Shown one piece after another: positions 2,663-13,951 of a stretch of 53,109 bases of DNA. A model generated the notes under the pieces. It made no database searches. It saw nothing but the letters and a program-made list of their open reading frames with translations, and had not been told where the DNA came from. Source of the stretch: Thermoplasmatota archaeon (lineage in GTDB: Archaea > Thermoplasmatota > E2 > UBA202 > JdFR-43); contig JAPDJP010000002.1 of the NCBI GenBank assembly GCA_029259055.1, forward strand, positions 1 to 53,109. Reading direction: 5' to 3'. Made by a program: the position numbers and the translations under genes. Within the stretch, counting starts at the first letter, position 1; each line of letters begins with the position of its first letter.

Positions 2663-3232
2663 TTAATCTTGTCTTTCTAATTCCTGTATCGAGAACCAAT
2701 AAATCAACAAATCTTTTTCTTTTTTCTCATAATCTTTGAATTCTTTGCTTATTATTTCCCAAAATTTTTTATTGTGTCTTCTTTCTTTTAAATGAACTAT
2801 TTCATGAAATACAACATATTTTATTAAATCATAAGGCAAATATTTGAGTAGTATATTGAAGGATAAATTTCCCTTATTACTACAACTTCCCCATTTAGAT
2901 TTTAGCCTTCTAAAATAAATTTTGTTAATATTAACTCCAAGTTTTTTGGAAAATTTCTTTGTTAGCTTTTCAATAATATTTTTTAGCTCTTCCTCGCTTC
3001 TTTTCTCTATTTTCTTCTTTTTTGCTTTTTTCTTTGCTTCTTCTATAATCAAACTTTTCCTATATATCCAATCCTTATATTTCTCAATCAGTTTTCTTTC
3101 ATCTTTGTAGTTTCTTGGTAATACTAGCAATAATTTCCCTGTTTTAAACTCGAGCCTAGGATACTTTATGTTGCGGTAATCTATTTCGTATTCTATCTCC
3201 TTATCGTAAATTTTAACTAGCATAATTCTCAA
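2663..3232 (-). CDS. SprT/YgjP-like (DUF45) zinc metallohydrolase associated with the R-M locus
   Basis: 'VVFHEIVHLKERRHNKKFWEII' (HExxH...H) and 'KSKWGSCSNKGNLSFNILL', typical of YgjP/DUF45; overlaps the 3' end of hsdR. Confidence 0.85.
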   Translation of the reverse strand: MRIMLVKIYDKEIEYEIDYRNIKYPRLEFKTGKLLLVLPRNYKDERKLIEKYKDWIYRKSLIIEEAKKKAKKKKIEKRSEEELKNIIEKLTKKFSKKLGVNINKIYFRRLKSKWGSCSNKGNLSFNILLKYLPYDLIKYVVFHEIVHLKERRHNKKFWEIISKEFKDYEKKEKDLLIYWFSIQELERQD

Positions 3233-6221
3233 CGCTTTTCATCAACTTTTCATATAACTTATCTCTTTCTTCCTTTGTTAATCCATATCTTCTTATAAAT
3301 CGGCGAATTTCTTTGCCAATATTTTTTCTAGCTGTTTGTTGAATGACCCAGTTTGGATACATATATTGTTGTAATTTGTTGACTAATTCCTTAACATCAT
3401 CTATTAATTCTTGCCTCCTCCCGACTTTTTCTTCTAAACTAAGCAAAATGGAATATTCAAGCTTATCCAAGCCCATTTCCTTTTGCCTTTTATTTAATTC
3501 TTGTATTTCTTTCCAAATTTTTACTCCTTCTTCATATATTCTCTCAAAATCTTTATTTTTCTCTTTCCACATTTTTAAAATCCTTTCTACTTTGTCAACG
3601 ACGCTTTCGTAAATAGGATTTTTCTCTCTTTCTACTAAAACAAATTTGTTAAGAGTAAAAACAATATTTGCAGCTCTTTCTTCCTTATTTTTAACTTTTT
3701 CCTCCAGCTTCTTTATGTAATTTTCATCAAATTCTATTATTGGTAGATTTTCTTTTAGTTCCCCAATTTCTGTTGTTGCATAAACATGCCTTACTGTTCT
3801 TCTAAAATATTCTCTGACTCTTTCATCTATTTCCTCTTTCCTTCTATCAACAATTCTTATGTAATAGACGTATATGCGCGAGAGCCATGTAAATTCTTGG
3901 TATAGCTCTGCTTTTATTATATCTGGACCAAGTAATTCAAAAAGTTTTCTTAATTTTCTATAACCTTTCAAAAATTCTTTTGCTTTTTTATCATCCGTCG
4001 ATAAAATTTCAAATGTTTTTCTTAATGTTGGCATTTCTAAATTTTTAGGTATCCCTTCAAATATGCTTAACAATTTATTAGTTAAATCTGCAAATTCTTT
4101 TCTTAATTCTTCAATGTCATAAATTGCCCCCTTAATATCTTCCTTACTATATATTTCAAACGCTTTTTCTAACTCTTTAAACAATCCAATGTAATCAATT
4201 ATGAGTCCTGCTTCCTTAACATCATCATAAGGACGATTTGTTCTCGCTATAGCTTGTAATAACCTATGCTCTTTCAATGGCTTATCTAAATACATTGTTT
4301 GCAAAATAGGAGCATCGAAGCCAGTTAGCAACATATCAGTAACAATTAATATTTTTGGCATCTCATCTTTTTCTTTAAATTTATCAACAATTTCTTTCCT
4401 TATTTCTTCTATTTCTTTTCCTTTAAATCTTTCTTTTAACTCCTCAAAATATTCTTGGATTATTGTTGGATCTTTAATGTTGAACGTCATAACAACCTCT
4501 GAATATTCTTTAGGCAATAGTTTGTCAAGTTGTCTTTTATACAAAACGCAAGCTTCTCTATCAACAGCAACAACCATTGCTTTGTATTTTCCATCAACCT
4601 CTTCCTTAAAATGTTTTGCTATATCTTCAGCAATTCTTCTTATTCTCTTTGGATTCTTCAACACAACCCTTATTTTATTCAATTTTCTCCTTACTTTTTC
4701 TTCTATTTTTCCTCTTAAATCTTCTGGCAATTCTTCGAATTCTTCTTTTAGAAATATCTCTAACAAATCTTTATCCAAATGTATTCCTTTTTCATCCTCT
4801 AATCGAGGCATATAAACAATTTTTAGGGTAAAACCATCTTTTATCGAATCTTCTATGAAATATTTGTCCAGATATTTTTCATATGGAGGATTGCTAAATT
4901 CTTCATATGTATCTCTTCCTTTCTTAGCTAAAGGTGTGCCAGTAAAAGCAAAGAAAAATGCATTTCTTAAGATGCTCCGCATTTGGGCAGCAAGCAAACC
5001 GTATTGGCTACGATGCCCCTCATCTATTAAAGCTATAACATTTTTTCTTTGCATTATAGTTTCTTTTGTTTTAGATAATTCTTCTAATTCCTTTTGCAAA
5101 TCATCTAGTTCCTTTGGATTGAATTTATGGATTAATGTAATGAATATTCCTTTCTTTCCTTTGTATTCATCATGCTTTATCATTCTTTTTAAGTCATTTA
5201 TTGATTCAATAATTTCTGGCTTAGTTATATCTAAAGCATTAAATTCTTGTCTTAGTTGCTCTTCTAATTCTCTTCTATCTACAATGAAAAATATGGTTGG
5301 ATTTTCTAATTCTTTCAAATAATATAATTTGTTTGCTGCAAAAATCATTGTTAATGTTTTGCCTGAGCCTTGCCAATGCCATATTAAGCCTTTATTCAAT
5401 TCTTCTTTTCCTTTTAAGTTATTTAAAACTCTTCTCACAATAGCATTTGCAGCCCTATACTGCATATATCTTGCAATAACTTTTGTTGCCTCTCCTCTTT
5501 CTTCTCTTATGAAAATGAAGTTTTTGGTTAAATCAAGCAATTTTGATGGAGAAAGCATTTCTATGGTAGCATCTAAAGAGTCTTTACCATCTTCTTTCCA
5601 TTCATAGATTTTTACATTACTAAGCCATGGAACTATGGGAAAATATTTTGCAATTTGCTCTGCAGCTATGCCAATTTGCACATATTTAAATAACTCTGGC
5701 ACTTTCTTTTCATAGTTCTTTATTTGCTTATAAGCATCATACCAGCTTACCGACATATCTAGGGGATTTTTACATTCAATAATAACAAGAGGAATTCCAT
5801 TTACATATAGCACAATATCAACTCTGATTGGCTCTTTTTCTTTCCCTTTATACCAAACTTGCCTACTTACAATAAATTCATTTTTATCAATATCTTCAAA
5901 ATCAAATAGCTTAACATTTTTTACAATTCTTTCTTTTTCAATTTTTATATTCACTCCATTTTTTAAAAAATATAAAATTTGCTTTACTCCTTCTATTCCA
6001 GCTCCTTTCAACTTCAATTTATTTATTACTTTCCTTATTCCTTCCTCATCTAACCCTTCATTTATTCTCGTTATAGCATTTGTTAAATTTCCAGTAAGTA
6101 ATGGCTCTTCCAAGCTATCTCTTTGCAATTCTTTTGCATCCAAAAAATGCCATCCTTTTTTAATTAGCTCATTAATGATGTAATCCTCTACTGCTGTTTT
6201 CTCTGGAGAACGAGGTATCAT
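3213..6221 (-). CDS. hsdR: Type I restriction enzyme R subunit
   Basis: 1002 aa; nuclease motif 'IPLVIIECKNPLD', Walker A 'WHWQGSGKTLTMIFA', DEAD-like 'IDEGHRSQYG', 'FTGTPL', 'TDMLLTGFDAP', 'QAIARTNRPYDD'. Confidence 0.95.
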   Translation of the reverse strand: MIPRSPEKTAVEDYIINELIKKGWHFLDAKELQRDSLEEPLLTGNLTNAITRINEGLDEEGIRKVINKLKLKGAGIEGVKQILYFLKNGVNIKIEKERIVKNVKLFDFEDIDKNEFIVSRQVWYKGKEKEPIRVDIVLYVNGIPLVIIECKNPLDMSVSWYDAYKQIKNYEKKVPELFKYVQIGIAAEQIAKYFPIVPWLSNVKIYEWKEDGKDSLDATIEMLSPSKLLDLTKNFIFIREERGEATKVIARYMQYRAANAIVRRVLNNLKGKEELNKGLIWHWQGSGKTLTMIFAANKLYYLKELENPTIFFIVDRRELEEQLRQEFNALDITKPEIIESINDLKRMIKHDEYKGKKGIFITLIHKFNPKELDDLQKELEELSKTKETIMQRKNVIALIDEGHRSQYGLLAAQMRSILRNAFFFAFTGTPLAKKGRDTYEEFSNPPYEKYLDKYFIEDSIKDGFTLKIVYMPRLEDEKGIHLDKDLLEIFLKEEFEELPEDLRGKIEEKVRRKLNKIRVVLKNPKRIRRIAEDIAKHFKEEVDGKYKAMVVAVDREACVLYKRQLDKLLPKEYSEVVMTFNIKDPTIIQEYFEELKERFKGKEIEEIRKEIVDKFKEKDEMPKILIVTDMLLTGFDAPILQTMYLDKPLKEHRLLQAIARTNRPYDDVKEAGLIIDYIGLFKELEKAFEIYSKEDIKGAIYDIEELRKEFADLTNKLLSIFEGIPKNLEMPTLRKTFEILSTDDKKAKEFLKGYRKLRKLFELLGPDIIKAELYQEFTWLSRIYVYYIRIVDRRKEEIDERVREYFRRTVRHVYATTEIGELKENLPIIEFDENYIKKLEEKVKNKEERAANIVFTLNKFVLVEREKNPIYESVVDKVERILKMWKEKNKDFERIYEEGVKIWKEIQELNKRQKEMGLDKLEYSILLSLEEKVGRRQELIDDVKELVNKLQQYMYPNWVIQQTARKNIGKEIRRFIRRYGLTKEERDKLYEKLMKSVENYAS

Positions 6222-6565
6222 ATTTCCTCCATAATTTTTTTAATTTGCCTTTCGAATGAAGGAATATCTTCCTTTATTGTCTTCCAGACTGTTTTATAAC
6301 TAACGCCAAAATATTCGTGAGTAAGCTTATCCCTCATTCCAGCAATTGCTTTCCATGGAATTTCAGGATATTTTTCTTTTATTTCATTTGGAATGTTTTT
6401 AACTGCTTCCCCAATTATCTCAAGTCTTTTAACAACAGCATCTTTGGTTTTTTCATCTTCTAAAAACTCTTCATAGTCCATTTCTCCAACATATTCTTTT
6501 ATTCTTTTGATCGATTCAATGATATCTTCGAATAATACTCTAACATCTCTTTTAGACATAAACAA
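6218..6565 (-). CDS. HEPN-domain toxin (HepT-like, DUF86)
   Basis: 'EIIGEAVKNIPNEIKEKYPEIPWKAIAGMRDKLTHEYFGV' with the Rx4-6H motif; preceded by an MNT nucleotidyltransferase. Confidence 0.9.
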   Translation of the reverse strand: MFMSKRDVRVLFEDIIESIKRIKEYVGEMDYEEFLEDEKTKDAVVKRLEIIGEAVKNIPNEIKEKYPEIPWKAIAGMRDKLTHEYFGVSYKTVWKTIKEDIPSFERQIKKIMEEI

Positions 6566-6842
6566 CTTCCTCCATTACATATGGTTTTATTCTTTCCTTT
6601 AAAGCATCTTTTTCAACCAAATCAACTTTTCTCCCTAATTTTTGGCTCAAATATTCTTCAAGCTCCATGAATTTAAACAAACCAATTGGCTTCTCAAACT
6701 CTATTAAGATATCTATATCACTCTCCTTCCTCTCTTCTCCTCTAACACATGAGCCAAATAATCCTATACTCTTCACACGATACTTTTTCCTAATATAAGG
6801 TAATTCCTTCTTCAATACTTTCAATATTTCTTCTTTTCTCAT
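6552..6842 (-). CDS. Minimal nucleotidyltransferase antitoxin (MntA-like)
   Basis: 'IGLFGSCVRGEERKESDIDILIEF' (GSx10DxD) in 96 aa; overlaps the HEPN ORF. Confidence 0.9.
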   Translation of the reverse strand: MRKEEILKVLKKELPYIRKKYRVKSIGLFGSCVRGEERKESDIDILIEFEKPIGLFKFMELEEYLSQKLGRKVDLVEKDALKERIKPYVMEEVVYV

Positions 6843-6931
6843 CCCATAACAACATTAGAAAATCCTTTATTATGGTTTTGAAAAATGAAATTATACCAAC
6901 AACTTTATAATACATTAACATTGTTTTTACT

Positions 6932-7105
6932 ATGCAATTAAAGGAAATTGAAAAAGAAATTAATGAAATAAAGGCAATGCTTCAGCGTATTGAAAATATG
7001 CTTGCTTTAAGATTAATTGGTATTGATGAACCTTATGAAGATGAATTAAAGGAAATTCAAGATTATGAGAAAAGAAAAAAAGAGGGCAAGATAAAGACAA
7101 CCTGA
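6932..7105 (+). pseudogene. Small coiled-coil antitoxin-like ORF, apparently frameshifted near its 3' end
   Basis: MQLKEIEKEINEIKAMLQRIENMLALRLIGIDEPYEDELKEIQDYEKRKKEGKIKTT*. A neighbouring frame immediately downstream reads EKSIDEFYEE*, a plausible original C-terminus. Confidence 0.45.
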
Positions 7106-7152
7106 AAAATCAATAGATGAATTTTATGAGGAATAATGATGATATTATGGCG

Positions 7153-8157
7153 TTATGTTTCTATAAATTTTTTAATTTGGTTATATATTTCATCGCACTT
7201 TTTAGCAGTCTCCTTTTTGCCTTTTTTCTTCGCTATATCGCTAAATTCTTTAAATATATCTAATTTCTCTCTTGGTATTTGCCTATTCTCTCTAATTGAA
7301 TTTTCTATTTTCTTTTTACCAATTTCAACAAACTTTGTGGGAAATTCCTCCTCTTCTTCAAGGAGTTTTTTCCAAAATAGGATCACTCTTTCCTTAATTG
7401 AATAATCGAATGTTGACTGATTAATGTCTGTTTTCGTCCATACCTCCCAAATGTACTCGCTGCTCCTGCAAAAAACATTTAAAAAACCTCGATCAATTGC
7501 TGATAAAGCAACATTACATAACTCCTGCAACCCGAATCTCACCCAGAAATGTTTCTTTGTTACAGAGGCATGATATGATATTTTCTTATACTCTTCTTTT
7601 ATATGGTCCATTACAAATGTCTTTTTTATCGCCCAACTAAAAAGAGGAATTATAAGAATAATGCAAAACATCGCCAATATAAAGGATAAGGTTGCCACAT
7701 CATCTGATTTCCTGTTTGTTCCATTTATGTAAAGAGGAAAGAATATCGAAAACATAAAAAGACAAATGTAAATAAGAAACCAGCCATTTAAAAGAATTCT
7801 TCTATGAAAATCTAGTGTATACCTTTGTGCAGAAATTTGTACAGTTAAAACTAGTAAAGTAAATAAAATGATAAAGATTGTAGCGGAGATAAGCGAAATA
7901 TTGCTAAGGAGGTCATTGGTATTCTCCACTTGGATAGGAAAAACATTAAAAATCCATAACAAGCACACTATAAAGACAAATATGGAAACAAATACCATCG
8001 TCAATTTCCATGGGTCATGATAGTAGATTCTGTAGTATTTTAGTCTATTGTAAAATGTATTCTTTATTTGTTCTTCTCGACCATTTTTTCCGAGAATGTG
8101 CAAAGAAACTACAACCCATACAAATAAAATTCCACATAATATATATTCACATATCAT
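7153..8157 (-). CDS. Multi-TM membrane protein of unknown function in the R-M operon
   Basis: 334 aa, about four hydrophobic segments in the N-terminal half, charged cytosolic-like C-terminus; starts 2 nt after the hsdS stop. Confidence 0.75.
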   Translation of the reverse strand: MICEYILCGILFVWVVVSLHILGKNGREEQIKNTFYNRLKYYRIYYHDPWKLTMVFVSIFVFIVCLLWIFNVFPIQVENTNDLLSNISLISATIFIILFTLLVLTVQISAQRYTLDFHRRILLNGWFLIYICLFMFSIFFPLYINGTNRKSDDVATLSFILAMFCIILIIPLFSWAIKKTFVMDHIKEEYKKISYHASVTKKHFWVRFGLQELCNVALSAIDRGFLNVFCRSSEYIWEVWTKTDINQSTFDYSIKERVILFWKKLLEEEEEFPTKFVEIGKKKIENSIRENRQIPREKLDIFKEFSDIAKKKGKKETAKKCDEIYNQIKKFIET

Positions 8158-8158
8158 C

Positions 8159-9460
8159 TTATAACTCTCCTAACACCTTTTCCACATTCACTCTTTTTCT
8201 TCCAGTAAGCAAATCATTCATAAGCCCTCTTTTTATCCTTTCCAGTTTTTCTTTCCTCCTCCTCTCCAACTCCAGCTTTTTATCTACCGTAGAAAGAATT
8301 TCTGCGATTTTTTGTTGTTCTGGAAGAGGAGGAAGAGGAATGAGTAGGTTTCTAATATAATTTTGTGGAATTCCTTTTATAGTTGTTCCTCTCGAAAATG
8401 ATTCAAATAATCTATTAACTTTAGGGGAATTAAAATACCATGTAATAAACAATGGGTTTATTTTTGATTTATCAAGAATAACCCCAGTTAAATCTTGGTT
8501 GATGGCCACATCTATTAGATTGATTGCTGATTTTCCAATCCCTACCCTTGTAGCAACTATTAAGTTCCCTTTCGGAACTATTTTTGCAGCGCTGTTTTTT
8601 AGACCTTCCCTTGTTATGTACTGCTCGATTGAGGTCTCATCAATATAATGCTTGGTTATATGCACACTTCTAATCCATGGGATCTCTCCATTCCAATATT
8701 TTGGCTCCTTAGTAGAAGGGGTGCCACCGCTTACAAATTCTTTTGTAATCTCCTTTATCCTTACCACCTTCCATTCCTTTGGAATTTCACAACCTAACTC
8801 CTTGCTATACTTGAATTCCTTGTGTCCTATGCCTTTTGTGAGCAATTTTTGCATTAGCCCTTTTTTCAATCTTTCTGTTTTGGCTATAGCTTCATCTACT
8901 TTTTGTATTGCCTCATCTACTGTAGAAAGAACTTTTGCAATGGCTTTTTGTTCTGGAAGAGGAGGAAGGGGAATGAGGAGTTGTAAAAATTCTCTTTTAG
9001 GTAAGTTTCTTAAACCAGTAGAGGTTTGTTGTAAACCCTTGAGAAAATCATAATATTTGTGAGAATTTAAAAAATAATAGAGATACCTTGGATAAACATT
9101 TTTTGGGCGAATTCTAATCATGAAATTTGAAAAAAGATATATTTGATCATTGTTTGGCTGTTCAAACAAGGCAGCCCTGCCGATTAAATGTGGTGAGCCA
9201 CTTGAGCCAACTATTAAAATATCTCCATCCTCCAAACGATATTTTTCTATTTTATCATTTGGAACTTTTCTATAGCTGACAGTTGATAAATCTATTTTTC
9301 CGTCGTGTGTAATTTCGGTAGAACGAATTATAGGATAGGATTTTTCATTTGGCATAGGCTCGTCTCCCCATATTCCATTCTGACAAGAGGCAATCACTTC
9401 TCGCAACTTTGTGATACTCCAATTGGCAGGATATTCTTTCATTTTATTTCTCCTTATCAA
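8159..9460 (-). CDS. hsdS: Type I restriction enzyme specificity subunit
   Basis: Two-fold architecture with 'LIPLPPLPEQKAIAKVLSTVDEAI' and 'LIPLPPLPEQQKIAEILSTVDKKLE' after two target-recognition regions. Confidence 0.95.
   Translation of the reverse strand: MIRRNKMKEYPANWSITKLREVIASCQNGIWGDEPMPNEKSYPIIRSTEITHDGKIDLSTVSYRKVPNDKIEKYRLEDGDILIVGSSGSPHLIGRAALFEQPNNDQIYLFSNFMIRIRPKNVYPRYLYYFLNSHKYYDFLKGLQQTSTGLRNLPKREFLQLLIPLPPLPEQKAIAKVLSTVDEAIQKVDEAIAKTERLKKGLMQKLLTKGIGHKEFKYSKELGCEIPKEWKVVRIKEITKEFVSGGTPSTKEPKYWNGEIPWIRSVHITKHYIDETSIEQYITREGLKNSAAKIVPKGNLIVATRVGIGKSAINLIDVAINQDLTGVILDKSKINPLFITWYFNSPKVNRLFESFSRGTTIKGIPQNYIRNLLIPLPPLPEQQKIAEILSTVDKKLELERRRKEKLERIKRGLMNDLLTGRKRVNVEKVLGEL
8284..8344 (-). 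repeat. hsdS conserved-region repeat, copy 1 (partner at 8917..8977)
   Basis: 61-bp near-identical DNA: 'ctaccgtagaaagaatttctgc...gttctggaagaggaggaagaggaatgag' vs 'ctactgtagaaagaacttttgc...gttctggaagaggaggaaggggaatgag'. Confidence 0.75.
8917..8977 (-). repeat. hsdS conserved-region repeat, copy 2
   Basis: Direct repeat of 8284..8344, encoding 'PLPPLPEQ.AIA.VLSTVD'. Confidence 0.75.
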
Positions 9461-10458
9461 ATCATCTTTTCATACTCACTCTTTTCCCCAGCAATAAAAA
9501 TAATTATGCCATCGTCTCCACGAATTATTGGTAATGCATATATTATCTTATTTACCTCTATTTCCAAAGCCCGTCTTATTTTTTCTACCCTGTCACTTTT
9601 CAATCTATCTGCCTTAATCGGTGCTAAGATGCCATTATCTTCTATTCCCACTATACATATTATAAATGGTCTTTTGGAGATAGTTTCGGATAGTTTCTCC
9701 GCTATTTTTTTATGATCCCCCACAAAACAATCCCTCGATTTAAATTCTATTATACCATCCTCGAGTTTAGTAAGTTGTTTTTCAAAGGATATTTCGTTGC
9801 AAAGCTTTTGTTTAAATCTTCTTAAAAAACAATTTAGAGGTGCTTTAGCATCTGAAATTAATAATTCGAAAATAGATGCCTCTATAAACCTTTTTAAATT
9901 TCTATCAAGAAGATTTGTATTGTTATAATATTTTAGAACCAACATTGTCAAATTACTCAGGTTGATCTCATTCAAGATACTCATACTACCTATTTTTAAT
10001 GGAGAATGTGAGTATGAAGCTCCTGCATGAAAAATATTTATCTCTTCCCCATTTACGAATCTTTTGTAGAGATCGTCCAAATAACTTTCCCTAATATCTA
10101 TTAATTCATTGATAAATAAAATATCTATGTATGGATTTTTCTTTTCAATCACAGTTATTACGTCTCCATTCTGGATCTTTATTAACTTATCTTTCTCATC
10201 ATAAAATTTATGGGTATATGGATCCATTGAATTGGCAATCTCTTTGTATTTTCTCTGATAATAAGTTATTTGGTATTTTTCGGCAGAGTAGTCTTGTAAA
10301 AAGTCTTTCGTATTTTTGTAAACTTTTTTTCCTACCCTAATCTGTTTAACTGTAAGAAATTCAATGGGATTAGAGAATCTTATTTTTCCTTCGGTAAATT
10401 CAGGATGTTTTTTAATCCATTGCTCTATCTCGTCCTCATTTATTTCGAAAACATTCAC
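9457..10458 (-). CDS. Possible AlbA_2/Schlafen-like domain protein in the R-M operon (GTG start, or continuation of an upstream frame)
   Basis: C-terminal 'GIIEFKSRDCFVGDHKKIAEKLSETISKRPFIICIVGIEDNGILAPIKADRLKSDRVEKIRRALE' resembles AlbA_2 (E-[FY]-K ... iiGi.d.G). 4-nt overlap with hsdS. Confidence 0.55.
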   Translation of the reverse strand: MNVFEINEDEIEQWIKKHPEFTEGKIRFSNPIEFLTVKQIRVGKKVYKNTKDFLQDYSAEKYQITYYQRKYKEIANSMDPYTHKFYDEKDKLIKIQNGDVITVIEKKNPYIDILFINELIDIRESYLDDLYKRFVNGEEINIFHAGASYSHSPLKIGSMSILNEINLSNLTMLVLKYYNNTNLLDRNLKRFIEASIFELLISDAKAPLNCFLRRFKQKLCNEISFEKQLTKLEDGIIEFKSRDCFVGDHKKIAEKLSETISKRPFIICIVGIEDNGILAPIKADRLKSDRVEKIRRALEIEVNKIIYALPIIRGDDGIIIFIAGEKSEYEKMI

Positions 10459-10538
10459 TATACCATCAATTTCTGAATATATTCGATAATATCCTCCAAA
10501 ATGATAAAAAATCTCTTTTTGTGGTAACCCTAACCAAT

Positions 10539-11033
10539 CTACAAATGATTCTGTAGCATATTTTTCAAAATATCTACCAAAATATTTTCTTTTCTTTGAA
10601 TAAATTGCACATATCTCAAAACATTATCTGAATCCAGCATTCTTGGGATAGTTTTCCATTCTGGTGTGATGGTCTCTTCTCCGTATATACTGTGGCATAA
10701 AAGAACTAGATTTTTCGTTACTATTCCAAGTGCATATTTACTTTCTTCCCTCATCCTAGTTTTCATACTATCTGTAAAATCATTGAGTAGCTCTTCCATC
10801 CCTTCTTTATCTATATTTGGATAATTGTTAAGTAATAATATTACCCATTTTTTCGGGTTTGTTCTAAGTTCAACTTCATCTAATCTTTTCTCTCTGGGGG
10901 AGGGTAAGCCTGATATAACTAATTTTATTCTCTCGATGTCTTTTTTATCCGAAATAATCGCTAAATCAACTTTTTCTTCTTTTATTTTCTTTGAAAATGC
11001 AAAAATGTTATCTCTTCTTTCCCCCACTTTCAC
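10539..11033 (-). CDS. Hypothetical protein between hsdM and the AlbA_2-like ORF; possibly the N-terminal part of a frame-split gene
   Basis: The track ORF begins inside hsdM; a GTG at 11033 overlapping the hsdM stop (GTGA) gives 'VKVGERRDNIFAFSKKIKEEKVDLAIISDKKDIERIKLVISGLPSP...'. Confidence 0.55.
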   Translation of the reverse strand: MKVGERRDNIFAFSKKIKEEKVDLAIISDKKDIERIKLVISGLPSPREKRLDEVELRTNPKKWVILLLNNYPNIDKEGMEELLNDFTDSMKTRMREESKYALGIVTKNLVLLCHSIYGEETITPEWKTIPRMLDSDNVLRYVQFIQRKENILVDILKNMLQNHL

Positions 11034-12556
11034 CCTACCTCCTTCAAATACTCTTCTATTTTTTCTTCCACCTCCTTTATTTCTTCCTCTATTTTCCTTA
11101 GTTCTTGCCATTCTTTGTTTATATCGATTTCTTCTATTTCTTCTTCGGGGAAGACATAAAGGGTTACATTGAGATTGTAGTCATTTTCTTTTATTTCATC
11201 TATGGAAACAGCTCGAGAAAAGCCTTCTATTTCTTGGAAATTGTGATAAGTGTTTGCAATCTTTTTTATATGCTCTTTGCTTAGCCTATTTAATTTTCTT
11301 ACTTCTGGATGTTGTTCATATTCTTGGCTTGCATTTATAAAGAGAATTTTTCCTTTTCTTTCTTTAGGCTTATTTTTGTTGAAAATGATTATTGCTCCTG
11401 GGGCTCCAGTATTGTAAAACAATTTTTCTGGAAGTAAAATAATGCAATCTATTAAATCCTCCTCAATTATTCTTCTTCTTATTGCCTTTTCCTTGCCTCC
11501 TCTAAATAAACAACCATTGTCTATAACTATGCCTATCCTGCCATTTTCTTTGGCAAAATAAATCATATGCTGAATCCATGCCCAATCTGCTGACTGGCGA
11601 GGAGTAAAACCATATTTAAAGCGCTGTTTCCACATCTCTCCTTTTTTAAGCGTTGTTTCATCATATCCATCCTGATTCCATGGAGGATTTGTTATGCATA
11701 TATCGAATCTCTCTTCCTTAAATTTTGGAAAGAGTAAAGTATCTCCATGAGCAATATGATGATTCATTATATCATGAATGTAAAGATTCATTTTGCACAA
11801 AGCATAAGTTGTCAAATTTGCTTCCTGCCCATATAAAAATAGTTTATCTGCCTCTTCTTTCCCAAATTTTTCTTTAACATGATTGTATGAAACAATAAGC
11901 ATTCCTCCGGAACCACAAGCTGGGTCATAAACGGCCTCATTTGGCTTTGGGTTCAAAATTTCCACCATTAATTTTATTACTTCTCTTGGGGTGTAGACTT
12001 CTCCTTCTTTTGCTTTTTGAGGAGCGAAGTAATGCAAAATCCATTCATATGCATCTCCTAAAATATCTGGCGATACATGAGTAAGTTTTTTCTCGCTAAA
12101 AAGCTCAATAAGTTGCCTTAAAATTTCTAGATTTTCCCTATTTGAAGTAAATTGAATGAAATCAACGCTATCGACAACATTCTGCAAATCTGGATTTAAT
12201 TCCGCAATTTTCTTTAAAGCTTTAGATAATGTTTCTGGCAAGGTAGCAACATTTTTTCTTATATTTTCCCATAAATATTCTTCTGGCAAATTAAAGGTAT
12301 GCCAAACTTCATTCTTTGCTTCTTCTCTCGCTTCTTCCTCGTTAAGTCCATCCTTTAAAGCTTCTTCATATGCTTGCTGATATTCCATTTCCCATTTATC
12401 ACTTATTCTTTTAAGGAAAAGTAAAATGAGAATAAACTTATAATCAACTCTTGTCCTGATCAAATCAGCAGCTTTTTTAAGAATAGCTTCAATTTCTCCT
12501 CTCGTTAATTCAACTCTTTTATTGCTAGCAAAATCATCCAATGGTTTTATTGGCAT
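11030..12556 (-). CDS. hsdM: Type I restriction-modification DNA methyltransferase subunit
   Basis: N6-adenine methylase motifs 'VYDPACGSGGMLIVS' and 'DICITNPPWNQDGYD'; HsdM-type N-terminal helical domain. Confidence 0.97.
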   Translation of the reverse strand: MPIKPLDDFASNKRVELTRGEIEAILKKAADLIRTRVDYKFILILLFLKRISDKWEMEYQQAYEEALKDGLNEEEAREEAKNEVWHTFNLPEEYLWENIRKNVATLPETLSKALKKIAELNPDLQNVVDSVDFIQFTSNRENLEILRQLIELFSEKKLTHVSPDILGDAYEWILHYFAPQKAKEGEVYTPREVIKLMVEILNPKPNEAVYDPACGSGGMLIVSYNHVKEKFGKEEADKLFLYGQEANLTTYALCKMNLYIHDIMNHHIAHGDTLLFPKFKEERFDICITNPPWNQDGYDETTLKKGEMWKQRFKYGFTPRQSADWAWIQHMIYFAKENGRIGIVIDNGCLFRGGKEKAIRRRIIEEDLIDCIILLPEKLFYNTGAPGAIIIFNKNKPKERKGKILFINASQEYEQHPEVRKLNRLSKEHIKKIANTYHNFQEIEGFSRAVSIDEIKENDYNLNVTLYVFPEEEIEEIDINKEWQELRKIEEEIKEVEEKIEEYLKEVG

Positions 12557-12601
12557 CCATTTTACATAATTTATTTCTCTTTAAACTTTTCTAACAGAAA
12601 A

Positions 12602-13519
12602 TTGAAATTTTTTATCTCTTTTTTACATATGAAACTCCCAAAAACGGGTCATGAATTGCTAACATGTTATTTTCCTTTTTATATAGACGCTTATGAAGGA
12701 TGCAGCCATAAATGCATATATTGTTATGCGGAAAATTACCTAAAAGAAAGAATAAGAGCTATTAAATTAAAAAATTTGAAAAGCGAAATAATAAAAAGAA
12801 AGATTCCGATAAGATTGGGAGCAAGAACAGATTGTTTCCAAAAAATAGAAAGAGAAAAAAAGATAACCAGAAGCATTATTGAAACCTTAAATTCATATAA
12901 TAATCCATATCTTATTGTTACAAAAAGTCCATTGGTGGCGGAATATACAGATATACTGGAAGAAAAACTTGCAGTTATTCAATTCACGATTACAACATTA
13001 AATGAGGAAATTGCAAGAAAATTGGAACCATTTGCCCCTCCGCCAGCGCAGAGAATAAAAGCTATGAAAGAGTTAAGCGAGAGTGGTTATAATGTTATTA
13101 CGAGATTTTCTCCAGTAATTCCAGATATTAATTTAGGAGAAGCGAGCCAAATAATGGAAAAAGTTGAATCGAAGCATATTATTGTAGAGTTTTTAAGAGC
13201 AAGAGAAGAAGTAGTGAAGGCATTAAACTTAAAAAATTATAGCAAAAGGGGATATTATTATAGATATGATATGGATAAAAAAATTAAAGCATATGAGAAA
13301 TTAAGAGAAATTTCTCATAATTTTGGTTTAAAATTTAGTATTTGCTCTGATGGTGACGCCATACCATATTACTTAAACGATACAAAAAATTGCTGTGGTA
13401 TCAATTTCAAAGGCGTTGAAAGAATAGCTCCAGTTGTTTATGAAGAAGCAAAAAACAAGAAAAAAGTTACTTTAAAAGATATGGAAAAATATTGGCATCC
13501 CTTACGCAAAAATTTATAA
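12602..13519 (+). CDS. Radical SAM protein, spore photoproduct lyase-like family
   Basis: 'DAYEGCSHKCIYCYAENYL' (CxxxCxxC), 'IPIRLGARTDCFQKIE', 'YNPYLIVTKSPLV'-type region. Start may be the ATG at 12629. Confidence 0.85.
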   Translation: MKFFISFLHMKLPKTGHELLTCYFPFYIDAYEGCSHKCIYCYAENYLKERIRAIKLKNLKSEIIKRKIPIRLGARTDCFQKIEREKKITRSIIETLNSYNNPYLIVTKSPLVAEYTDILEEKLAVIQFTITTLNEEIARKLEPFAPPPAQRIKAMKELSESGYNVITRFSPVIPDINLGEASQIMEKVESKHIIVEFLRAREEVVKALNLKNYSKRGYYYRYDMDKKIKAYEKLREISHNFGLKFSICSDGDAIPYYLNDTKNCCGINFKGVERIAPVVYEEAKNKKKVTLKDMEKYWHPLRKNL

Positions 13520-13585
13520 AGGCATGGTTGAGGGGAGATTTTGAAAGATATGTTTATGGATTGAAATGGTGTGGAGACTACTATA

Positions 13586-13951
13586 TTATAACTCATCATA
13601 CTTCTTGTTCACACCCTTAGATTTTTCTACAGGATATCTTTTTTCGTTTATCTCCAACTTTTTTATTAAAGCGGAAGATAAATCTATATCATATTTTTCT
13701 GAAAATCTTAAAATGAAATAAAGGATATCCGCAAGCTCCTCCTCCACTTTCTCTCTTTTTTGCAACATTATTTTTATCTCATCATCCTTGTTTTTAAATC
13801 TAAAAATTTCTAATAATTCTGAAGCTTCTGTAACTATTCCTATAGCTAAATCTTTTGCTGTATGAAATTTGTCCCATTCTCTCTCCTTACAAAACTTTTT
13901 CACTTTATTTTTAAGCAGGCTTATTGTCGTTAAATCATCTTTCATCCTCAT
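13586..13951 (-). CDS. MazG-like nucleotide pyrophosphohydrolase
   Basis: 'DLAIGIVTEASELLEIFRFK', 'EKVEEELADILYFILRFSEKYDID' (ExxE...ExxD). Confidence 0.9.
   Translation of the reverse strand: MRMKDDLTTISLLKNKVKKFCKEREWDKFHTAKDLAIGIVTEASELLEIFRFKNKDDEIKIMLQKREKVEEELADILYFILRFSEKYDIDLSSALIKKLEINEKRYPVEKSKGVNKKYDEL

What the first reader, a model, noticed from the sequence alone, without database searches (positions are those of the whole stretch)
2663..12556. Expanded type I R-M island: HsdM-X-AlbA_2?-HsdS-membrane protein, then MNT-HEPN-HsdR-metallohydrolase
The HsdM, HsdS and HsdR subunits are all present but separated by non-canonical genes on the same strand. The upstream block is hsdM, unknown ORF, AlbA_2-like ORF, hsdS, multi-TM ORF; the downstream block is MNT, HEPN, hsdR, YgjP/SprT-like. 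Junctions are mostly 4-nt overlaps or gaps of a few nt (11030/11033, 9457/9460, 8157/8159, 6218/6221), implying co-translation. Recurrence across genomes would suggest a composite defence system rather than plain R-M. Individual families are established; a combined system is inference.
Basis: partly seen in the sequence, partly recalled or inferred. Interest (0 to 1): 0.75.

Follow-up and report, generated by a model that had tools for sequence, protein, structure and literature searches.

The report
Restriction operon carrying swappable extra genes
This archaeon carries a classical DNA-cutting antiviral system whose operon holds extra toxin-like, membrane and Schlafen-fold genes that related archaea swap in and out of the same two positions; the general idea is already known, but one of the extra gene families is new, and here that gene is broken by a frameshift.

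Summary
The locus is real, with intact hsdM, hsdS, hsdR, MNT, HEPN and YgjP genes. One reading error matters: the 'unknown ORF' (10539-11033) and the 'AlbA_2?' ORF (9457-10458) are one gene, here called X, about 525 aa, split by a single-nucleotide frameshift near 10561-10580. Intact homologues of 516-601 aa exist in 17 other archaeal loci. X matches no Pfam, NCBIfam or PADLOC model, but a model of its closest intact relative gives Schlafen nuclease domains as the best PDB hits, and the E-x4-E-x-K signature is near-invariant. X lies beside type I hsd genes in 8 of 17 full-length loci, and one distant archaeon has the same order, hsdM-X-hsdS-[cargo]-hsdR-YgjP. Over 34 complete related archaeal operons, 19 carry extra genes in the hsdM|hsdS or hsdS|hsdR slot; YgjP follows hsdR in 29 of 39. 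The cargo is interchangeable: the membrane protein recurs without X, and X recurs without it. So this is not one obligate composite machine. It is a type I R-M backbone with swappable embedded accessory genes, like the phage-protective RRDM island of E. coli. New: the archaeal X family and the membrane-protein family. Effector function is inferred.

The parts
11030..12556 (-). hsdM, type I N6-adenine methyltransferase subunit (508 aa), motifs DPACGSGG and NPPW intact
10539..11033 (-). gene X, 5' piece (164 codons from a GTG overlapping the hsdM stop by 4 nt); N-terminal domain with invariant F86, H114, N137 in 18 homologues
10561..10580 (-). stretch in which the reading frame of gene X changes (T4 and A5 homopolymers); all 17 other full-length homologues are open across it
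9457..10578 (-). gene X, 3' piece; C-terminal Schlafen-fold domain with E425-x4-E430-x-K432 and G463-I-E (numbering of the read-through protein)
8159..9442 (-). hsdS, specificity subunit with two target-recognition repeats (ORF opens at TTG 9460; likely start ATG 9442)
7153..8157 (-). membrane protein, 5 predicted TM segments plus a cytosolic helical tail; unknown family, 66% identical homologue in the same slot of a sister genus (L066)
6932..7105 (+). small 57-aa ORF in the gap between the two blocks, opposite strand; weak DUF5646 similarity (E=0.008, below cut-off)
6552..6842 (-). MNT nucleotidyltransferase (MntA/PDC-S09-like), GS-x10-D-x-D motif intact
6218..6559 (-). HEPN RNase (HepT-like), R-x4-H-x-Y motif (RDKLTHEY) intact; overlaps MNT by 8 nt and hsdR by 4 nt
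3213..6221 (-). hsdR, restriction/translocase subunit (1002 aa) with HSDR_N nuclease, GSGKT and DEGH motifs
2663..3223 (-). YgjP/SprT-like metallopeptidase, HEIVH; standard companion 3' of hsdR (ORF opens at TTG 3232, likely ATG 3223)

Best explanation
This is an archaeal type I restriction-modification operon with a stable backbone, hsdM-hsdS-hsdR-YgjP, and two intergenic slots (hsdM|hsdS and hsdS|hsdR) that hold interchangeable embedded accessory genes. HsdM2S methylates host sites and HsdR translocates and cuts unmodified DNA; this part is established for the family and the motifs are intact. The embedded genes most likely act as a second layer that halts growth or kills the cell when restriction fails or is inhibited, as PrrC does (inferred). 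Here the cargo is a Schlafen-fold protein X, predicted to be a nucleic-acid-binding protein or RNase; a 5-TM membrane protein, a possible membrane effector; and an MNT-HEPN pair, in which HEPN is an RNase and MNT silences it by AMPylation (shown for the family elsewhere, not here). X is frameshifted in this contig, so in this genome it is either recently inactivated or mis-assembled; intact copies exist in other archaea.
For: Backbone and families. X is one gene. Same order hsdM-X-hsdS-cargo-hsdR-YgjP in L049, a member of another phylum, with homologues of HsdM (1e-214), X (1e-166), HsdS (1e-69), HsdR (1e-231) and YgjP (1e-26). X next to type I hsd genes in L009 and L008 (DHVE2), L015 (Freyarchaeota), L046, L048, L049, L054 and the window: 8 of 17 loci, binomial p about 2e-12 at an assumed 1% background. 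Slots: 34 complete operons, slot 1 filled in 15, slot 2 in 18, either in 19; YgjP in 29 of 39. Cargo families in those slots include HEPN, MNT, PIN, DUF3800, PLD, SIR2, Mrr, Schlafen/AlbA_2 and membrane proteins. Swapping in close relatives: L066 (82% HsdR identity) keeps the membrane protein but has two other genes in place of X. The own genome has only 3 MNT genes, so MNT next to hsdR is not explained by abundance. X fold: best PDB hits SLFN13, SLFN11, SLFN14, SLFN5, E=9.5e-4 and weaker, most with probability 0.99-1.00; E-x4-E-x-K conserved in 17-18 of 18. Precedent: the E. coli RRDM island HsdM-HsdS-DarTG2-HsdR-M48 protects against phage (PMC12255303); PrrC in prrI and HEPN genes in R-M operons (PMC3506569, PMC3710099).
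Against: No activity was tested. X is broken in this contig. About half of the full-length X loci have no hsd genes within about 9 kb, so X does not need type I R-M. The TM protein is clearly known from only one other genome. The AF2 model has 7 rows, mean pLDDT 67.6, and an unresolved N-terminal half; a profile search of PDB sequences found nothing. The hsdR loci were chosen by similarity to the window HsdR, so slot frequencies are not a census of type I systems.
Confidence: 0.72

Rival explanations
1. Obligate composite defence system: X, membrane protein, MNT-HEPN and YgjP work with HsdRMS as one machine in which every part is needed.
For: Tight gene overlaps; the whole order is nearly repeated in L049.
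Against: Cargo comes and goes independently: L049 has X but HEPN339-PIN instead of TM and MNT-HEPN; L066 has TM without X; L082 and L087 have MNT-HEPN directly before hsdR; L068, L070 and L072-L074 have no cargo. Two probable transcription blocks in the window.
Confidence: 0.08
2. X is a regulator: an AlbA_2/Schlafen-like DNA-binding protein that controls expression or assembly of the R-M enzyme rather than an effector.
For: AlbA_2 domains are often DNA-binding (general knowledge); X often lies inside or next to the hsd operon; canonical AlbA_2 genes sit in both slots of L101, one of them with an HTH domain.
Against: X has no recognisable HTH; the conserved E-x4-E-x-K pattern matches the carboxylate spacing of Schlafen nuclease sites (spacing from own knowledge of SLFN13 E205/E210); X also occurs without hsd genes.
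Confidence: 0.25
3. Chance clutter in a defence island: accessory genes merely landed between hsd genes.
For: R-M loci lie in islands with high turnover; the congeneric genome G001 gave no match to this HsdR and has different genes next to the shared flank.
Against: X with hsd genes in 8 of 17 loci, p about 2e-12 at 1% background; same slot in distant archaea; same-strand, overlapping insertion; YgjP in 29 of 39; only 3 MNT genes in the genome.
Confidence: 0.05
4. X is a dead gene here: the frameshift is real and the locus now works as type I R-M plus MNT-HEPN (and perhaps the membrane protein) only. This is compatible with the best explanation for the operon family.
For: A single frame change in an otherwise conserved ORF; both halves are still well conserved against L049 (63% and 47% identity), which fits a recent event.
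Against: The same pattern is expected from a one-base assembly error in a homopolymer; no reads or second assembly could be examined.
Confidence: 0.45

Closest known systems
RRDM island of enteropathogenic E. coli (RptR-HsdM-HsdS-DarTG2-HsdR-M48), PMC12255303
   Same: Type I backbone in the same order, a toxin-antitoxin pair between hsdS and hsdR, a metallopeptidase gene after hsdR; shown to protect against phages
   Different: Toxin pair is DarTG2, not MNT-HEPN; an RptR repressor gene is present there and not here; no gene between hsdM and hsdS; bacterial
PrrC/EcoprrI (anticodon nuclease embedded in a type IC locus), PMC3506569
   Same: Toxin-like RNase gene embedded in the hsd locus; the model for a back-up that fires when restriction is inhibited
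   Different: PrrC is an ABC-ATPase/HEPN fusion; the window has a separate HepT-like HEPN with an MNT, plus X
HepT/MntA (type VII toxin-antitoxin)
   Same: Adjacent overlapping genes, R-x4-H-x-Y and GS-x10-D-x-D motifs
   Different: Both score below NCBIfam equivalog cut-offs (45.0 and 52.8 against 60); embedded in an hsd operon
Embedded defence candidates (PADLOC PDC, 'guilt-by-embedding', Payne et al. 2024 preprint, known here only through citation in PMC12988326)
   Same: The MNT matches PDC-S09 (E=4e-33); the idea of defence genes embedded in other defence operons is theirs
   Different: X and the membrane protein match no PADLOC-DB 2.0.0 model
Schlafen / SLFN_AlbA_2 (PF04326)
   Same: C-terminal domain fold and E-x4-E-x-K signature
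   Different: No Pfam match; long N-terminal part of unknown fold; found only in archaea in the collections searched

Membership tests
Type I restriction-modification system | HsdM with methyltransferase motifs I and IV | tested here: met
   PF02384 E=1e-122, PF12161 E=9e-15; DPACGSGG and NPPW in the sequence
Type I restriction-modification system | HsdS with two target-recognition domains and conserved helices | tested here: met
   Methylase_S two stretches; repeats LPPLPEQKAIAKVLSTVDEA and LPPLPEQQKIAEILSTVDKK
Type I restriction-modification system | HsdR with PD-(D/E)xK nuclease and SF2 motor | tested here: met
   TIGR00348 744.5 bits, HSDR_N, SWI2_SNF2; ECK, GSGKT, DEGH
Type I restriction-modification system | m6A at a bipartite motif; restriction in vivo | not testable with these tools
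   needs methylome and plating assays
HepT/MntA type VII toxin-antitoxin | RNase motif R-x4-H-x-Y in HepT and GS-x10-D-x-D in MntA | tested here: met
   RDKLTHEY and GS-CVRGEERKES-DID in the translations
HepT/MntA type VII toxin-antitoxin | NCBIfam equivalog score | tested here: not met
   45.0 and 52.8 bits against 60: same superfamily, not called as equivalogs
HepT/MntA type VII toxin-antitoxin | Toxicity and neutralisation by AMPylation | not testable with these tools
   biochemistry needed
Schlafen / SLFN_AlbA_2 (gene X) | Profile match to PF04326 | tested here: not met
   no match for the window pieces, L008, L009, DL31, T. profundus or Freyarchaeota X
Schlafen / SLFN_AlbA_2 (gene X) | Schlafen core fold | tested here: met
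   Foldseek best hits SLFN13, SLFN11, SLFN14, SLFN5, about 120 columns, E=9.5e-4 and weaker, on a homologue (L015) model with good C-terminal confidence
Schlafen / SLFN_AlbA_2 (gene X) | Carboxylates E-x4-E and a downstream acidic residue | tested here: met
   E425 18/18, E430 17/18, K432 17/18, G463 18/18, E465 14/18; equivalence to SLFN13 residues is from own knowledge, not aligned here
Schlafen / SLFN_AlbA_2 (gene X) | RNA cleavage | not testable with these tools
   needs purified protein
RRDM-like island | hsdM-hsdS-[toxin pair]-hsdR-metallopeptidase order | tested here: met
   reference order from PMC12255303
RRDM-like island | DarTG2 toxin pair between hsdS and hsdR | tested here: not met
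   MNT-HEPN occupies that position
RRDM-like island | RptR-type repressor upstream of hsdM | tested here: not met
   a radical-SAM-like gene on the other strand (12602-13519) lies there
PrrC/EcoprrI | ABC-ATPase fused to HEPN anticodon nuclease | tested here: not met
   HEPN is a 115-aa stand-alone protein
MADS (mad2/mad5) | NCBIfam MADS equivalog scores | tested here: not met
   90.1 bits against 720 and 77.2 against 400

The most novel reading that the evidence does not exclude
X founds a new archaeal family of Schlafen-type ribonucleases that guard restriction systems: kept silent by, or waiting on, the HsdM/HsdS complex and released when restriction is inhibited, so that an animal-type antiviral nuclease fold does in archaea what PrrC does in bacteria. 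The family is independent of hsd subtype, because it also sits in a methyltransferase-helicase-PLD operon of Thermococcus profundus.
Probability: 0.3. Interest if true: 0.65.

Novelty: new variant of a known kind. Interest (0 to 1): 0.45.

Why it matters
It shows that archaeal type I restriction operons have two insertion slots filled by exchangeable toxin-like genes on a backbone shared with bacteria. It gives a defined list of untested candidate effectors, above all the X family, which database annotation misses entirely. If X cleaves RNA, it links Schlafen nucleases of animals with restriction-associated suicide systems of archaea and is directly testable with intact homologues.

Tried and rejected
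Single-protein scan of genome contigs with the 3' piece of X found nothing; the alignment scan found five loci, all archaeal. Viral contigs: no homologue of X; phage records: none. PADLOC PDC-S51 match to the X 5' piece (E=0.005) vanished with intact homologues. A profile search of PDB sequences found nothing. Foldseek against viral models gave no hit at E <= 0.001. Hits to methyltransferases (NNMT) have rmsd of 13-16 and come largely from the low-confidence part; rejected. The G107 match to X is a 27% stretch in a 666-codon open frame beside unrelated genes; rejected. Programmed frameshifting was considered and rejected: every other full-length homologue is one open frame and no canonical slippery heptamer is in phase. 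A shared X-plus-membrane-protein module was considered: the proteins next to X differ in family between loci, so this is not supported. An empty insertion site could not be shown: only one flank is shared with the congener.

Full report
What is there. The window is a whole contig (G000:C8) of a 1.34-Mb archaeal genome. Two X homologue genomes of the same phylum are titled DHVE2 group archaea, which places the window in Thermoplasmatota (inference). On the minus strand the genes read hsdM, X, hsdS, a five-TM protein, then after a 310-nt gap MNT, HEPN, hsdR, YgjP. The catalytic motifs of HsdM, HsdR, MNT, HEPN and YgjP are intact by direct reading. The gap holds a 57-aa ORF on the other strand, so two transcription units are likely.

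One gene, not two. The 3' frame is open upstream of its GTG and reads ...FEKYATESFVDWLGLPQKEIFYHF..., which aligns with intact proteins that continue without a break from the sequence of the 5' ORF. A read-through query matched 581-codon open frames in two DHVE2 genomes over residues 52-513, DL31 over 8-490, and later a 516-aa protein in Freyarchaeota (39%) and a 556-aa protein in L049 (E about 1e-166). The frame change falls in a T4/A5-rich stretch at about 10561-10580. Whether it is a mutation or an assembly error cannot be told from one contig.

The X family. No Pfam, NCBIfam or PADLOC model matches X. HMM searches found it in 17 of 393 sampled genomes of the phylum of Natronococcus and 6 of 227 of the phylum of Freyarchaeota, several of these partial, and tblastn in 72,556 plasmids found only three archaeal records. 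An AlphaFold2 model of the Freyarchaeota protein is confident for about residues 230-516 and poor before that. Its best PDB matches are Schlafen domains. Across 18 full-length members E425, E430, K432 and G463 are near-invariant, as are H114, N137 and F86 in the N-terminal part.

Company of X. Type I hsd genes lie within about 9 kb of X in the window, two DHVE2 genomes (hsdR-hsdM-hsdS-X-157 aa TM protein), Freyarchaeota (X, HARE-HTH, a 330-aa gene, hsdR, hsdM, HEPN, hsdS), L046, L048, L049 and L054. That is 8 of 17 full-length loci from the genome searches, p about 2e-12 if 1% of random loci had hsd neighbours; counting the two related DHVE2 loci once gives 7 of 16 and about 1e-10 (1% is an assumed generous background). 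In Thermococcus profundus X follows a methyltransferase gene and precedes AbiEi/AbiEii and a helicase-PLD gene. In DL31 it precedes an AlbA_2 protein and a TM protein.

The operon family. Close HsdR homologues were taken from two phyla and their surroundings fetched. Among 34 loci with all three hsd genes in order, 15 have extra genes between hsdM and hsdS, 18 between hsdS and hsdR, 19 in either; a YgjP-like gene with HExxH follows hsdR in 29 of 39. Bacterial plasmids also have an SprT/YgjP metalloprotease next to hsdR, as does Haloarcula, so YgjP is an ordinary companion. Cargo includes PIN, HEPN, MNT-HEPN, DUF3800, PLD, SIR2, Mrr, canonical AlbA_2 and membrane proteins. MNT stands directly before hsdR in the window and, with or without a HEPN gene between them, in L082, L085, L086, L087 and L090, although the window genome has only three MNT genes in all.

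Exchange. L066, with HsdR 82% identical to the window, keeps the membrane protein (66% identical) after hsdS but has a 238-aa and a 351-aa gene where the window has X. L049 keeps X but has a 339-aa gene and a PIN gene in slot 2. L082 and L087 keep MNT-HEPN. Thermoplasmatota loci L068, L070 and L072-L074 have no cargo. The congeneric genome G001 gave no match to this HsdR and has pdxS/pdxT-like genes beside the shared flanking gene. Cargo genes are therefore replaceable and the island itself is accessory.

How it most likely works. The R-M core methylates self and cuts foreign DNA (family knowledge; motifs shown). YgjP is of unknown role. MNT-HEPN is a toxin-antitoxin pair of the HepT/MntA type (motifs shown, equivalog cut-offs not met). 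X and the membrane protein are inferred to be further effectors or sensors. That embedded genes back up restriction is shown for PrrC (PMC3506569, PMC3710099) and proposed generally for HEPN genes in R-M operons; an E. coli island with the same gene order protects against phages (PMC12255303). For this locus it is inference.

What is new. Embedding of toxin-like genes in type I operons is known, and the MNT is already a PADLOC embedded candidate, PDC-S09. New here, as far as these libraries show, are the X family with its Schlafen fold and its link to R-M systems across several archaeal phyla, the membrane-protein family, and a count of slot occupancy for one archaeal operon family. The novelty search was limited to open-access PMC papers and the named libraries.

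Limits. The neighbourhood tables use automatic longest-ORF calling with an 80-aa cut-off and a sample chosen by HsdR similarity; several loci are cut by contig ends; no activity was measured.

Noticed in passing
window 6932-7105 (+): 57-aa ORF between the two blocks, opposite strand, rich in charged residues, weak DUF5646 similarity; looks like an orphan antitoxin-type protein.
   Followed up: partly
L056 (G466:C1:1544501-1564500), 8697-11327: X homologue split into two pieces by an insertion of about 1 kb with a 316-aa opposite-strand ORF: a second, independent disruption of X.
   Followed up: no
L013 (Thermococcus profundus plasmid NZ_CP014863.1), 6797-17343: Methyltransferase (Eco57I type), X, AbiEi-like, AbiEii, helicase with PLD domain on one strand: a restriction-like operon with X that is not type I.
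   Followed up: partly
L091, L092, L094, L095, L097, L099, L101, L102: Tandem paralogous hsdM genes before a single hsdS in many loci from the phylum of Natronococcus, which suggests heteromeric M subunits.
   Followed up: no
L101 (G498:C30): Canonical AlbA_2 proteins with RecG-like C-terminal domains in both slots, and a DUF4062-looking protein in slot 1.
   Followed up: partly
L100 (G590:C1): SIR2-domain gene between hsdM and hsdS and an Mrr nuclease gene between hsdS and hsdR.
   Followed up: partly
L015 (Freyarchaeota), 11673-13732: HARE-HTH protein and a 330-aa protein (weak DUF3644 similarity) between X and hsdR, plus a HEPN gene between hsdM and hsdS.
   Followed up: partly
L011 (halophilic archaeon DL31 plasmid), 6125-10107: X followed by a stand-alone AlbA_2 protein and a membrane protein with a C-terminal zinc ribbon, about 10 kb from a DUF1156 methylase-helicase cluster.
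   Followed up: partly
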